DNA of 64,000 nt from Lasiodiplodia sp. COLG20 (Eukaryota > Ascomycota > Dothideomycetes > Botryosphaeriales > Botryosphaeriaceae). Position 1 is the stretch's first letter. The number at the start of each line of letters is the position of its first letter. Below the pieces are notes generated by a model that did no database searches, was not told where the DNA came from, and saw nothing but the letters and a program-made list of their open reading frames with translations. The stretch lies in the NCBI GenBank assembly GCA_009801085.1, contig VNWV01000004.1, positions 2,356,001 through 2,420,000 on the forward strand, written 5' to 3'. A program made the translations under genes and the position numbers. Positions 53,442-61,686 of the stretch are shown here, in pieces.

Positions 53442-56309
53442 GGGGTGCCACTTATTACCCTGCTCCCGCACAATACTTACGGGATTATGGGGGGTGAAGC
53501 TGTGGTGGATACCACATGGTCCGAGCTACTTTAGTGGAGGAAGGGGCTGGTTGTTGGTGGAATTTTCTTCTTCTGCGTCCGTCTCTTCTACTTTTGTTTT
53601 TTTCTCGGCGGTTTTTGGTGTTTCTGATTTACGCCAATGACGATGGTTATGAGGTTGGAAAGAATAACAAAGAAGAAAAATGACAGACTTTTACGATTGA
53701 TCTTTGAGCTCAAGAAAAACTGGCTTTGGCTCGCCCGAGATGCGAACTGTGAGGTAAGTGTGGGCCTTGACGGCTAGCGAGCCGGGCGAAGTAAGATTGC
53801 CGACCTAAAGCGGGCGGTAGCTGGCTCTCCTGGACCCTCTGCAAACCCTGGGATCTCGCAACTACTCGACCGTGGCTCAGCGCAGACGACAACGCGAAAA
53901 TTTTCATACTGAACCATCATACAGTGCCATGGGTGGGTATATAAGTGCCCAATGTTTCCATAGTCTTGCAATCTTCAGGAATGCTCAATGGCTCCTCCGT
54001 CCTGGCTACGAAAAGCCCAGTCAGATCCCTGGTGGCCGGCAACCGTCAATGACTCCTGTTCTATGAACAACGCGTCTTCGCAATAGGTACCTGTCGAATC
54101 CGAAAGCACCACGGAACTGAATCATCGGACGATGCTACTTCAAGCAACGGACGCCATCGGGCACAACCACGAGGAAAGAGGCAACGAATAGGTACGTTCA
54201 CACCTGACAACAACACTGGCACATCACAGATTCACTTTCTGATTCTTCCTCAACGACCCGCGCAAGGCGAAAGCGTCAACGAAAAAAAAGAAGTTTGTGT
54301 ACGTCGATCGAGGTCAAAGACCCGTCTCTGTACGAAGATCAAAAATTGCTCCGACGACGTCGGGCTCGTACAAAGGTCCCCGACTGCGATGTGCAATGCA
54401 GCGGTAGCCAATGCAGGTCTCTGGCTTTCTTGAGCACCAGGACCCCGGACACAGCCCTGATGTCCTCCATATCAACACCAACCTGTGCTGTTAGCATTGC
54501 TCCTCCACAATAGGGGGGGCAGAAGGGAAGTTCCAAAAAAAAGTCACCAGGGCGGTGGTATGAGGAGAAAAGAAGAAGAAGAGATTCAGGACGGGCGGAA
54601 GGCGACCTAAATACCTGAACGAATGGTCAGTGCGTCTGTACGCTGGATGGAGAAAGTGGCGTTCGGCCAGCATAATAGGAAGCCGCTGCTGCGGACTGCA
54701 AGAGAGTCGGGGCGGTGGGGGGCAGCGCGGTCGAATGCGGGAAGGAGGGAAGAGCTGTTCGGCAGGGGCGGGGGGAGAGAGTTCGCAACACCTGCATCAC
54801 GGACGACGGCCCCACCAAGCTGTGCGGCGCCGAGTGTTCGCAACCGGCCTTTGCAAGATGGAAGATGGATGGTACTGTATTGAAGCAAGTGCCCTGCGAT
54901 TTTGCATCAAGTTCTGACAAGAAGCGCGATTCGATGCGGCGTTGCAGGCATTCGCAAACCCACACCTTTCGCCGCTGCCAGTGTTCCAAATCGAGGTCCA
55001 CTGCTGCGCTTACTCTGCCAGAGTTCGGAGGGAAGTGAGGATTGACCGGGCCAGGGCTGGGAAATGACGGAGGCACCCGTGCAGCGCGCAACCCCGAGGA
55101 AAGACCAATGCCGACACCGCGAAACCGAGAGCGATCCTCCGATCTTTTCGCCAGACATTGGCGTGCGTGCGGTGCAGCTTTGGGTCTCAACCCAGAAAGT
55201 ACGGACGGAAGACTCTCTTGCTTGAGTTGAGTGCTGATTTTCGCAAAAGTCGTGCTCCCGCTCTACTGCCTCAATTCTGTCGCCATCTCCCCTTTCGCCG
55301 CAGGATGCTACACCCAGCGTTCGCGACCCTTGTCTGCACCATAATGGCAACTACCGAGTTGCCATCCGCGATCGAAGTTGATCATGTTGGCTGGAGTCAC
55401 AAACGACCACATGGAAACGGAGACTCAGTACACTGGACCAATAATTGGGCGGTGGCTGGAGGTGATGGACAGAAGAACAAATCCGAGAATGTGGAGCTCC
55501 GGAAATGCCTTGTGCTTGTCAGGCACCTGGTCGAAGTTGTCTGCGATGGAATATGGATATTTAATGTGGCAGAGCGTCCTTTCTAATCACACGGCATCTT
55601 GCAAACACCAGCCTCTCTCCAATATTCCACACAGCTTTCAGCTATACCCTCTTTCCTCTCTTGTCTTTTACCTCTTGATCTCTTCGACAAAAAAAAATTA
55701 AAAGAAAAACCGATGGTCGAGTACGGTTGTAACCTTTCCAGGCCAAGCGCTTCGCTTACAACATTCCATCTTTCTGTTTTGGCTCCACACACTTCGCGCC
55801 CCTTGGACGTGCATCACAAATTCCCGTCAGCTATTCTCAGCAAATACTGAGAGATTCGCCATCACCCCCAGTACCTCGAAATGGGCAAGACGCCTTCGTC
55901 AGGGTCCTTGGAAAAAAAAAAAGGCCGCTCGGACCGACAGCTACGCACGAACTGCAAAAAGCAAAACGTACAACAGCCGGGATTCCCCAATGGTCACCCA
56001 CTTGAGTACCAATCGGCCGGTTCGCAGCTTAAGTACGGCTGAGCGGACGGGAAGCCCTGCATTCTGCGACCTATGGTCGTACGTGAAAGATGTTGTGTCC
56101 AAGTCTGCTTAAGAAGTGAAAAGGTTCCGGCCAGGGTGCGGTTTCTCCCAAGTGCTCAACGAAAACACCATCCACCCTCGCAGCATGTATGCGTCTCAAT
56201 ACTCTTAATTGCCTCTGACAAGACGCCGATTTGGAAGAGTCTGTAAGTGCGCATAAACGTGTGGTATCTCGATTAAAAAAGAAAACGTAATTACAACATA
56301 ACTCAAGGC
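53442..56309. other. Long intergenic region, no gene seen
   Basis: About 2.9 kb with overlapping frames of 60-190 codons on both strands (for example 54627-55190 and 54907-55350). None has a domain or coherent splice sites. An A-run occurs at about 55911-55922. Small multi-exon genes or ncRNAs cannot be excluded. Confidence 0.45.
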
Positions 56310-58137: not shown

Positions 58138-60345
58138 ATGAGTCCAACATCAAGACAGACGTGCATACTCTGTTCCAGGATCTTCACGCATAACCAGGGC
58201 CGGTACTCGCCGTGGGCGCTGCTCTGCTCCAGCTTTAGCGGGGTCAGACACTCTGTAGCGCGTGTTATTCTGGAGAGATCGGCGCGGGCCGGGTGCAAAC
58301 TATGTCGGCTACTGTTTATCACGGTATTGGAAGCGGACCAGAAAAAGGCCCAAGTTGAGGATGACGAGAAGCGTAGAGAGGAGGACGAGCAGGACAACGA
58401 GGAGATCCATTTCCAGTTCTCTTTTGAGAAGAGATTGCAAAACGACACCAAGATCATCAAGCCTGTCCTGCAGGTGTCCCGCCTCGACACTGTCTTCTCT
58501 CGGACACTGGAGTTCGACGTAGGAACTCTCGATGGTGCGCTAAACTTCATTCTACATCTGTTACTTCGCTGACGAATTGGGCCAGGCGATCCGCTGGGCG
58601 AAGTACAAACCATTAGTGTACCACATGCACTTTCTATTGACGATGCGAAACTGAACGTGGCGTTGCCTGTCCGCAAGCAAAAGTCGGACAGGGGCACACG
58701 GACTATCTTTCAGATGATCCAAGGCTGGGTCAAGTCTTGCGATGAGCGGCTCCCTGAGAAAGATGCGGCTCATTGCTGCGCTCTGAATCCGACGGTCCCG
58801 ACCCGGCTAATCGACGTTTCCGGAGCGCCTCAAAAACTGCGCCTGATCAACACCGGAGGCAAGGCCCATGCCGCGTATGCTGCACTGAGCTATTGCTGCG
58901 GTGACTCAGAGCCACTGCAGACGACGAAGAGCAACGTGGCCCAGCACATGGACGATATAGCCATCACCAAGCTTCCCTGGATGTTCCTGGACGCCGTCAA
59001 AACGGCGCGGTGGCTGGACCTGAAGTACATCTGGATAGATGCGTTGTGTATCATCCAGGATGACGAAGACGACCGCGAGCACGAGATGGCGCGCATGCAC
59101 AACACGTTCCAGAACTCGTACGTCACCATCGTGGCGGCGCGGGCGCGGAGTTGTCGAGAAGGCTTTCTGAAGGCCGACAACCTCTGGAACCCGCTGGCGA
59201 CGCTGACGTTGCGCTGCGAGAGCGGCGAGAAAGGGAGCATGCTCCTGACGCCGAAGAAGGACAACTTTCCCCGAGACGAATACCACACGCTGCGAGAACC
59301 GCCGTACGAGCGCGCCTGGACGCTGCAGGAGGTGGTGCTCTCGCCGCGCGTCCTCATCTACACGCACGACTCGGTCGTGTGGAAGTGTTTCTGCCACGAC
59401 AAAGGGCTCGTCTACAACTCACTCACGGGCGAGGCCTGGGGCCGCGACTGGAACGCCTACTGCGCATCGGCAGGCCTGATAACCATGCGCCTGTGCCCGT
59501 CGGGCCGCATCATCCAACCCGGCGTCACCGCCACCATGCCTTCCTTCCTCCTCATCGACCCCTCATCGCCCGGCGACGGCAGCGGCGGCAAGCTCAGCCG
59601 CGCCCAGACGCGCGCGCACCAGCTCTACCGCATCTGGGAGTTCCTGGTGCAGGACTACTCGATCCGCCGCCTCACCTACCCGGACGACAAGCTGCCCGCG
59701 CTGGCCGGCCTGGCCGCCTACTTCCAGCGCGCACTCAACGACGCCTACCTGGCGGGGCTGTGGAAGGGTCACTTCGTGCACGAGCTGTGCTGGACCGTCG
59801 ACGCCAAGCGCGCCCAAGCCACGGGCGGCGTCAGCCTGCCGCCCACCTGGCGCGCGCCCTCGTGGTCGTGGATGTCCATCGACGGGCCCATCGCCTTCGA
59901 GGCCAACCGCCACACCACCTTCGAGTCGCACATCTCGCACTTCCGCTGCGTCGCCGAGCCGCTGGTGCCCGGAGCACCCTTTTCGCGTCTGCGCCCCGGC
60001 GCCTTCGTCGACCTCGCCGCCCTCATGCTGCCCTACGACACCACCGAGGACTGCCGCATCTTCTTCGACTGCGGCGGCGGTATGGGTGGCGGCATGGGCG
60101 CCCCCCTGAGCCCTGCTGCCCCCAAGCGCCCCGAGCTGTGGCTCCTCCTGGCCGCTACCTGCCAGACCTTCACCAGCCAGAAGCGGCACGGCAATCTGCT
60201 GCCCAGCGGGAGTATCTGGGGGCTCGTGCTGCAGGCGACCTTGGACGGAGGGGGTGATACGTTTGAGAGAGTGGGCCATTTCACTGGTGGATGGCGCGCT
60301 GCTCAGCAGTTTCCGGGGAATGAGAAGCAGATTAGGATTATTTAG
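58138..60345 (+). CDS. HET-domain protein
   Basis: Exons 58138-58534 and 58586-60345 (51-nt GTGCGC..CAG intron with a CTGAC branch) give 718 residues. The N-terminus has a Cys pair (CILCSRIF, CKLCRLLF) common in fungal HET proteins. The HET core begins near residue 229 (YAALSYCCGDSEPLQTT), with LPWMFLDAVKTARWL, KYIWIDALCIIQDDEDD, MHNTFQNSYVTIVAARA and YERAWTLQEVVLSPRV, a complete and well-conserved set. The C-terminal part (WRAPSWSWMSIDGPI) is also typical of this subgroup. It is unrelated in detail to the HET protein at 22-24 kb. The role would be allorecognition or stress-induced cell death; no partner is visible. Confidence 0.92.
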
Positions 60346-61066: not shown

Positions 61067-61190
61067 GCTCTACTGGCGTATGTATTACCCCCTTTTCCCA
61101 CTCAACACCATCATCTGACACCACGATAGGCAATGGAAGCGCGTTAGACTTCTAATCTAAAGGCTGCGGGTTCGAGTCCCGCGTAGAGTA
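61067..61190 (+). tRNA. tRNA-Arg (TCT) split in the D-arm by a spliceosomal-type intron
   Basis: Acceptor strand GCTCTAC (61067-61073), T8-G9, first half of the D-stem GC (61076-61077), then a 52-nt insert (61078-61129), then GC completing the D-stem and AATGGAA, GCGC, G26, anticodon stem TTAGA/TCTAA with loop CTTCTAA (anticodon TCT, 61151-61153), variable AGGCT, T-stem GCGGG/CCCGC with TTCGAGT, acceptor GTAGAGT and A73. Removing exactly 61078-61129 gives a perfect cloverleaf apart from a G1-T72 wobble, which is also seen in yeast tRNA-Arg(UCU). The usual 37/38 intron is absent. The B box (GGTTCGAGTCC, 61169-61179) is intact; the A box is split. It decodes AGA. Confidence 0.9.
61078..61129 (+). 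other. GT-AG intron-like insert inside the tRNA D-arm
   Basis: 52 nt beginning GTATGT and ending GATAG, with CTGAC at 61115-61119 (branch A 11 nt from the 3' end) and a CT-rich middle. Donor, branch, acceptor and length match the spliceosomal introns of protein genes in this window (many are 48-54 nt). Boundaries are exact: TGGC before and GCAATGG after recreate an A-box/D-arm TGGCGCAATGG. A TTTT run at 61093-61096 could act as a weak Pol III terminator. Confidence 0.85.
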
Positions 61191-61686
61191 ACAGCCGCAT
61201 CTTTTTGCCTATCTGTTGCCTGGGGGGCGGTCCATTGTCATGCAGTTGATACGGAACTCAACATCGGTGACGTGGAAGCGTTGCATGATGGCGTGAAGCA
61301 TTGTTTTGCAACGCGCGGCAGGAGATCTCAGCGATAAAGTCATCCTTCAGAGGACAGGAGCGTCACTGTATTCTTCCTCTGGAACTATACTTGGACTACC
61401 GTAACGCTCCGGCCCCATTCAGCGGGAAAAGACGCACCATAAATCACGGCCTTTGGCTGAAGAAGTACTGTGCATACGAGTGGACATGAGAAATTCATTC
61501 ACACGTTGTCGGCTCTCCGCTCTACAGATACTCAGTTCAATGCGGTTTCTCCCCCTCTGTCTCCAAACCCCTAGTCTTAGACCATTGTAATCCGGACTGC
61601 TCTTTCTTTGCTTCCTCATTCAGAGTGACCGCTCAAAGAACACACCGATTCTTACCTCATCATCTATCTATCCCCGCCCCTCCCTC
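61191..61686. other. Intergenic region, no gene seen
   Basis: Between the tRNA and the 3' end of the GDPD gene. Apart from the T5 terminator nothing is recognisable. Confidence 0.5.
61202..61206 (+). terminator. Pol III terminator
   Basis: TTTTT starting 12 nt after the tRNA discriminator base, the normal position for Pol III termination. Confidence 0.7.

What the first reader, a model, noticed from the sequence alone, without database searches (positions are those of the whole stretch)
61067..61190. tRNA-Arg(TCT) gene interrupted in the D-arm by a canonical spliceosomal intron
Seen: removing exactly 61078-61129 gives a perfect tRNA-Arg cloverleaf, and the removed 52 nt has GTATGT, CTGAC (A 11 nt from the end) and TAG, with the same length as nearby mRNA introns. 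Known: nuclear tRNA introns in fungi normally sit at 37/38 and are cut by the tRNA endonuclease, while Pol III transcripts are not normally spliceosome substrates. Ectopic D-arm tRNA introns are known from some algae and archaea but use bulge-helix-bulge cleavage. Inference: a mobile intron (introner-like elements are reported in Dothideomycetes) landed in a tRNA gene. Either the spliceosome rescues it or the copy is dead.
Basis: partly seen in the sequence, partly recalled or inferred. Interest (0 to 1): 0.93.

Follow-up and report, generated by a model that had tools for sequence, protein, structure and literature searches.

The report
Spliceosomal introns inside fungal tRNA genes
In this fungus a transfer-RNA gene, and at least sixteen others in the same genome including every initiator-methionine tRNA gene that was found, are interrupted by what look like ordinary messenger-RNA introns, so the cell's protein-making machinery appears to depend on the mRNA splicing machine for some of its tRNAs.

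Summary
Removing window 61078-61129 leaves a sound tRNA-Arg(TCT); the 52-nt insert has GTATGT, CTGAC (A 11 nt from its end) and TAG. The assembly (43.5 Mb; nearest named proteins Lasiodiplodia) holds at least 17 nuclear tRNA genes with GT..YTRAC..YAG inserts of 52-60 nt, at seven positions: Arg-TCT 2 of 2 copies found, initiator Met 4 of 4, Phe 6 of 6 (each also has a normal 37/38 intron), Ala-TGC 2 of 2, Pro-AGG 3 of 5. After removal, 17 of 17 give the expected tRNA. Acceptor-stem partners on opposite sides of the insert change together between copies, insert bodies diverge while splice signals stay, and two Pro genes show the empty site. These results argue against pseudogenes and artefacts. 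Length and branch-point distance match 17 tubulin introns of the same genome. Each gene is followed by a Pol III-type T-run, and T-loop introns carry a B-box-like sequence. Best reading: Pol III pre-tRNAs spliced by the spliceosome. No RNA data were available, so splicing is inferred, and the search for uninterrupted copies was not exhaustive. Ten searches of an open-licence library found no natural precedent in tRNA; U6 snRNA introns are nearest.

The parts
61067..61077 (+). Exon 1 of tRNA-Arg(TCT): acceptor 5' strand GCTCTAC, T8 G9, first half of D-stem GC (positions 1-11)
   Evidence: Sequence; pairs with 61183-61189
61078..61129 (+). 52-nt spliceosomal-type intron at tRNA position 11/12
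   Evidence: Removal gives tRNA-Arg(tct) in ARAGORN
61078..61083 (+). 5' splice site GTATGT
   Evidence: Sequence; the same hexamer occurs in 1 of 17 tubulin introns of this genome
61115..61119 (+). Branch site CTGAC, branch A at 61118, 11 nt from intron end
   Evidence: in tubulin introns 9-17 nt in 15 of the 16 that have a motif
61127..61129 (+). 3' splice site TAG
   Evidence: Sequence
61130..61190 (+). Exon 2 of tRNA-Arg(TCT), positions 12-73; anticodon TCT at 61151-61153; no 37/38 intron in this copy
61169..61179 (+). B box GGTTCGAGTCC (Pol III internal promoter), intact
   Evidence: Sequence; consensus recalled
61202..61206 (+). T5 run, Pol III-type terminator, 11 nt after the tRNA end

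Best explanation
The insert is a true U2-type spliceosomal intron in a working nuclear tRNA gene, one of at least 17 such genes in this Lasiodiplodia genome. The gene is transcribed by RNA polymerase III through its internal promoter and ends at the T-run. The spliceosome recognises GTNNGY, the branch site and YAG in the pre-tRNA and removes the intron as a lariat. Where present, the ordinary 37/38 intron is removed separately by the tRNA endonuclease, and RNase P and tRNase Z trim the ends. Shown from sequence: the anatomy, its recurrence in five tRNA species, selection on the spliced form, and empty-site paralogues. Inferred: the splicing step, the polymerase, and the order of steps.
For: (1) 17 of 17 genes give the expected tRNA in ARAGORN when the insert is removed; unspliced, 9 are not called, 7 get a wrong anticodon, and 1 (the window gene) gets the right anticodon with a shifted 5' end. 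(2) All 17 inserts are 52-60 nt with GTNNGY, YAG and a YTRAC whose A lies 10-12 nt from the end; 17 tubulin introns of the same genome are 49-129 nt, with a YTRAY in 16, A 9-17 nt from the end in 15 of these. (3) Among the 6 Phe and among the 4 iMet copies insert bodies are 42-74% alike (shuffled 44-55%) while the 5' site is kept at 5-6 of 6 positions. (4) Exon 1 and exon 2 covary across the insert: changes on both sides at 2 acceptor pairs in iMet, 3 in Arg-TCT, 2 in Ala-TGC. (5) Pro-AGG has 3 copies with and 2 without the insert. (6) All iMet (4), Phe (6), Arg-TCT (2) and Ala-TGC (2) genes found carry one. (7) A T-run of 5 or more lies 8-48 nt downstream in 17 of 17, none inside. (8) All 4 T-loop introns, which cut the B box, hold GTTCRA; 0 of the 13 others do.
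Against: No RNA evidence. The genome searches are capped and not exhaustive, so an uninterrupted copy could have been missed. Both Ala-TGC copies have a T-T mismatch at acceptor pair 6-67. The single U6 gene found has no intron, and most tRNA species seen here have none of these introns, so invasion of Pol III genes is not general. The window's own intron has TTTT inside, a weak Pol III stop in some eukaryotes (recalled). The lack of longer T-runs in the introns is not a telling difference against tubulin introns.
Confidence: 0.87

Rival explanations
1. The inserts are ectopic tRNA introns of the archaeal/algal sort, removed by the tRNA splicing endonuclease at bulge-helix-bulge folds; the GT..CTRAC..AG look is incidental.
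For: Non-canonical tRNA introns are reported in the red alga Cyanidioschyzon merolae and in algal nucleomorphs (D and T arms), and the first are ascribed to the splicing endonuclease (PMC4090602 passages). A simple bulge-helix-bulge geometry test did not separate the two classes: full 4-bp helix in 1 of 17 inserts and 3 of 16 ordinary 37/38 introns, so it neither supports nor excludes this.
Against: Three spliceosomal signals at nearly fixed spacing in 17 of 17 while the bodies diverge; size matches mRNA introns.
Confidence: 0.05
2. The interrupted genes are dead copies or pseudogenes.
For: Insertions in D or T arms of eukaryotic tRNA genes are mostly supposed to be pseudogenes (PMC4090602 passages). 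Ala-TGC acceptor mismatch.
Against: No uninterrupted nuclear Arg-TCT, iMet, Phe or Ala-TGC gene was found. Compensatory acceptor pairs across the insert in three species. The tRNA exons of the 6 Phe copies are identical but for one base in L114.
Confidence: 0.04
3. The introns are spliceosomal, but the precursors are Pol II transcripts rather than Pol III transcripts.
For: Spliceosome recruitment is normally tied to Pol II and the cap (recalled). The A box is split in both Arg genes and one Ala gene, and the B box in the three Pro genes and the other Ala gene.
Against: T-run of 5 or more 8-48 nt after 17 of 17 genes and none inside; B-box-like sequence inside all 4 T-loop introns; the U6 precursor of fission yeast, a Pol III RNA, has an mRNA-type intron that is spliced (PMC10484740 passages).
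Confidence: 0.07
4. Assembly or sequencing artefact.
For: None found.
Against: 17 separate loci with distinct insert sequences and the same anatomy; inserts lie exactly where their removal restores the tRNA.
Confidence: 0.01

Closest known systems
mRNA-type introns in U6 snRNA genes of fission yeast and other fungi
   Same: Spliceosomal intron in a short Pol III RNA. The title of Frendewey et al. 1990 says Schizosaccharomyces U6 introns hold a B-box match, as the T-loop introns here do (title seen in the reference list of PMC10484740).
   Different: The host genes here are tRNAs, many genes and seven positions; U6 in this genome is uninterrupted.
Spliceosomal introns in rDNA of ascomycetes; mRNA-type intron in a Rhodotorula U2 gene
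   Same: Spliceosomal introns in non-coding RNA genes of fungi (titles seen in the reference list of PMC2586383).
   Different: Other host genes; neither is a tRNA gene.
Ectopic tRNA introns of red algae, nucleomorphs and archaea
   Same: Insert in D, anticodon or T arm; two or more introns in one tRNA; the archaeal list includes 30/31, as in Phe here (PMC4090602 passages).
   Different: The archaeal and C. merolae ones are ascribed to the splicing endonuclease, and how the very short nucleomorph ones are spliced is unknown; the passages seen do not describe GT/branch/AG signals.
Yeast tRNA precursor with an engineered pre-mRNA intron (Koehrer, Vogel and Domdey 1990, recalled, not seen; one search did not find it)
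   Same: Would show that a pre-tRNA can be a spliceosome substrate.
   Different: Artificial; here it is natural and recurrent in one genome.

Membership tests
U2-type spliceosomal intron | GT..AG ends with an extended 5' site | tested here: met
   17 of 17 GTNNGY and YAG
U2-type spliceosomal intron | Branch site at proper distance from the 3' end | tested here: met
   17 of 17 YTRAC, A 10-12 nt from end; exact CTAAC in 15 of 17 against 4 of 17 tubulin introns
U2-type spliceosomal intron | Size of mRNA introns of the host | tested here: met
   52-60 nt against 49-129 nt in 17 introns of three tubulin genes
U2-type spliceosomal intron | Removal by the spliceosome through a lariat | not testable with these tools
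   No RNA data
tRNA endonuclease (37/38 or bulge-helix-bulge) intron | Position one nucleotide 3' of the anticodon | tested here: not met
   Positions 9/10, 11/12, 13/14, 24/25, 30/31, 55/56, 57/58 (numbering by hand)
tRNA endonuclease (37/38 or bulge-helix-bulge) intron | Bulge-helix-bulge at the junctions | tested here: inconclusive
   The geometry test finds a full 4-bp helix in 1 of 17 inserts and only 3 of 16 ordinary 37/38 introns
Functional nuclear tRNA gene | Cloverleaf with expected anticodon after splicing | tested here: met
   17 of 17
Functional nuclear tRNA gene | Selection on the spliced form | tested here: met
   Both-sided changes at 7 acceptor pairs in three tRNA species; a T-T mismatch at pair 6 in both Ala copies speaks against in that species
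Functional nuclear tRNA gene | Pol III terminator downstream | tested here: met
   17 of 17 within 48 nt
Introner-like element | Near-identical copies dispersed in other genes | tested here: inconclusive
   In 334 kb fetched (with overlaps) only tRNA paralogues and one 21-nt match; whole genome not searched with the intron

The most novel reading that the evidence does not exclude
In this lineage the supply of initiator Met, Phe, Arg-TCT and Ala-TGC tRNAs depends wholly on the spliceosome. The introns that cut the B box are kept because they bring their own B box, so the intron is at once a splicing substrate and a piece of the Pol III promoter. Translation and mRNA splicing are thereby tied together through tRNA.
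Probability: 0.6. Interest if true: 0.96.

Novelty: new variant of a known kind. Interest (0 to 1): 0.92.

Why it matters
tRNA introns and mRNA introns are taught as two separate worlds with separate machines, and a 2021 annotation paper states that eukaryotic tRNA genes are limited to one intron (PMC8450103 passage). A genome in which several essential tRNAs seem to be made only from genes with spliceosomal introns would be a natural test of whether the spliceosome needs Pol II, cap or exon-definition factors. It would make tRNA supply sensitive to splicing, and it would mean that tRNA finders overlook such genes (ARAGORN missed, mislabelled or mis-set 17 of 17 here). The set of positions, with two empty-site paralogues, also gives a clean system for studying intron gain.

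Tried and rejected
Covariance-model search of the genome with a 3'-half tRNA model: built, not accepted for this genome. Ten S. cerevisiae tRNAs as one DNA query: 5 places, all tRNA-Pro. General 3'-half patterns: 166 and 89 places against 186 and 126 for the reversed control (the list was cut), useful only by eye. D-arm pattern for Asn/Ile/Tyr: 82 places, of which 7 are Leu-AAG; 5 others were fetched (L119-L122, L134) and are not tRNAs by ARAGORN, the rest were not fetched. Pattern for Asp/Glu/Val: 10 places, 8 ordinary tRNA-Asp, 2 not tRNAs (L128, L131). Nuclear genes for Asn, Ile, Val-AAC, Trp, Cys, Glu and Gln-CTG were not located; whether they are interrupted is unknown. Absence from the tRNA family search proves nothing: it lists 1 of 7 Leu-AAG places (4 of the 7 were read in full and are ordinary), and a Tyr-GTA and a CAT (Met) gene, both with 37/38 introns only, turned up by chance in L086 and L092. 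Viral contigs scanned for the iMet and Phe exon-intron junctions: 6 and 1 matches, unrelated by eye. Bulge-helix-bulge test: not discriminating. T-run depletion: a run of 5 in 2 of 17 tubulin introns and 0 of 17 here, not a telling difference. Five other places were fetched; ARAGORN finds no tRNA there, though it also overlooks genes of the kind reported. Relatives' genomes could not be reached, so the age of the introns is unknown. 'The only copy' (my first reading) was dropped after one search found a second Arg-TCT gene.

Full report
What is at the locus. Window 61067-61190 reads GCTCTACTGGC, then 52 nt, then the rest of a tRNA-Arg(TCT), followed 11 nt later by a T5 run. ARAGORN on the raw window gives a shifted tRNA whose first 12 nt are intron, and Rfam aligns only positions 8-63. 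Removing 61078-61129 gives a 72-nt tRNA-Arg(tct). The junction can slide by 1 nt; GT-AG settles it. The insert has GTATGT, CTGAC with the A 11 nt from the end, and TAG. In this window 6 of 511,520 segments (four lengths from 52 to 60) show the three signals.

The organism. The window lies in a 43.5-Mb assembly of 88 contigs. One window protein is 98% identical to one of Lasiodiplodia hormozganensis, and another is 98% identical to one of L. theobromae, so it is most likely a Lasiodiplodia (Botryosphaeriaceae, Dothideomycetes; placement recalled). Contig C47 holds a mitochondrial-type tRNA set, among them an uninterrupted Arg-TCT gene (L035) that is not expected to serve the cytosol.

It is not alone. 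The tRNA family search of the assembly (63 matches) and later DNA and pattern searches led to 17 nuclear tRNA genes with the same kind of insert. Initiator Met: 4 copies (L007, L110, L111, L112), intron between positions 24 and 25. Phe: 6 copies (L025, L030, L031, L113, L114, L115), between 30 and 31, each with an ordinary 37/38 intron as well. Pro-AGG: 3 copies (L075, L076, L078), in the T-loop between 57 and 58. Ala-TGC: 2 copies, one between 9 and 10 (L086) and one in the T-loop between 55 and 56 (L116 with L133). Arg-TCT: the window copy (11/12) and L067 (13/14). Pro, Ala and L067 have an ordinary 37/38 intron too. Positions are numbered by hand. The three matches below the family cut-off are the iMet, Arg and Ala genes of this set (L066/L007, L067, L116). 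By hand tally about 86 nuclear tRNA genes were seen, a lower bound, some known only from a 30-nt match. Those read for Lys, Thr, Ser, Gly, His, Gln, Leu, Asp, Tyr, Arg-ACG, Arg-CCT, Val-TAC, Ala-AGC, Pro-TGG and a second Met-CAT species show, by my reading of the ARAGORN calls, no intron or only a 37/38 intron.

No uninterrupted nuclear copy of four tRNA species was found. For iMet, Phe and Ala-TGC, (a query of the spliced forms) returned 4, 6 and 2 places, and all are interrupted. For Arg-TCT, one search found only the window copy, (an uninterrupted anticodon-to-T-loop pattern) found only it with TCTA, and (which allows a 37/38 intron) gave L067 and five places where ARAGORN sees no tRNA. Such searches are not exhaustive. 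For Pro-AGG two copies (L077, L079) lack the T-loop insert and show the exact empty site.

The inserts are introns of the mRNA kind. All 17 are 52-60 nt, GTNNGY at the start, YAG at the end, and YTRAC with its A 10-12 nt from the end. As a yardstick I aligned alpha- and beta-tubulin to three tubulin genes of the same assembly (of four tubulin-like loci fetched), forcing GT-AG but not the branch site: 17 introns, 49-129 nt, with a YTRAY in 16 of 17, its A 9-17 nt from the end in 15 of those 16. tRNA introns have the branch site CTAAC in 15 of 17 against 4 of 17 (Fisher p 0.0004; the copies are paralogues, so this is not a true probability). The window intron is one of the two that lack it. Between copies the bodies are 42-74% alike in Phe and 57-67% in iMet (shuffled 44-55% and 48-51%), yet the 5' site keeps 5-6 of 6 letters in every pair.

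The spliced form is under selection. ARAGORN gives the expected tRNA for 17 of 17 spliced genes; unspliced, 9 are not called, 7 get a wrong anticodon and 1 has a shifted 5' end. Acceptor-stem partners sit on opposite sides of the intron: iMet copies differ at pairs 6 and 7 by changes on both sides, the Arg-TCT copies at pairs 2, 3 and 5 (and one-sided at 6), the Ala copies at 5 and 7. Against: both Ala copies keep a T-T mismatch at pair 6. Phe and Pro copies do not vary in the acceptor stem and so say nothing.

Transcription. A T-run of 5 or more follows 17 of 17 genes at 8-48 nt and none lies inside a gene; the window intron has one TTTT. The T-loop introns interrupt the B box; all 4 hold GTTCRA (strict GTTCRANNC in 3 of 4), against 0 of 13 other tRNA introns and 1 of 17 tubulin introns; shuffled T-loop introns have it in 2.6%. 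Three of the four are paralogues. The title of Frendewey et al. 1990 reports a B-box match inside Schizosaccharomyces U6 introns (seen in the reference list of PMC10484740). Whether the internal B box works is not tested.

Mechanism. Most likely: Pol III transcript, spliceosome removes the GT-AG intron, endonuclease removes the 37/38 intron where there is one. Fission-yeast U6, a Pol III RNA, contains an mRNA-type intron that is spliced (PMC10484740, introduction passage). The endonuclease rival could not be excluded by structure, since my bulge-helix-bulge test fails to recognise most 37/38 introns (3 of 16, against 1 of 17 inserts). It is disfavoured by the kept splice signals.

What is in print. 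Ten searches of an open-licence library gave no listing that reports a natural spliceosomal intron in a tRNA gene. I saw listings and, for six papers, passages only. The library lacks most subscription papers and bioRxiv. PMC4090602 says D- and T-arm insertions in eukaryotic tRNA genes are mostly supposed to be pseudogenes, with nucleomorphs and C. merolae as exceptions. PMC8450103 says eukaryotic tRNA genes are limited to one intron; the Phe, Pro (3), Ala genes and L067 here appear to have two.

Limits. No RNA data, no relatives' genomes, incomplete tRNA census (Asn, Ile, Val-AAC, Trp, Cys, Glu and Gln-CTG not located), introner origin untested genome-wide.

Noticed in passing
L025, L030, L031, L113, L114, L115 (3' end of tRNA-Phe): All 6 tRNA-Phe genes have a conserved 3' trailer (39-45 nt counted from A73) with two hairpins before the T-run; 12 of 12 pairs hold in 6 of 6 sequences and 3 pairs change on both sides. 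Function unknown.
   Followed up: partly
L075, L076, L078 and L116: T-loop introns that split the B box carry a B-box-like GTTCRA of their own, a possible promoter replacement.
   Followed up: partly
L086, L116: Both Ala-TGC genes share a T-T mismatch at acceptor pair 6-67 after splicing.
   Followed up: no
L136 (G000:C78:1858460-1858559): Single U6 snRNA gene above cut-off, without an intron.
   Followed up: no
L086 919-1028; L092 1077-1183: Two ordinary tRNA genes with 37/38 introns only, called Tyr-GTA and Met-CAT, found by chance in fetched loci.
   Followed up: no
window 55965-56084 (-): 5S rRNA gene 5 kb from the tRNA gene (Rfam 76 bits).
   Followed up: no
window 58657-60345 (+): HET-domain (heterokaryon incompatibility) protein gene just upstream of the tRNA, 98% identical to one of Lasiodiplodia theobromae.
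   Followed up: no
L041-L043: Genes that I read as tRNA-Lys(CTT) with an ordinary 37/38 intron are called tRNA-Leu(taa) by ARAGORN; uninterrupted Lys-CTT copies also exist.
   Followed up: no
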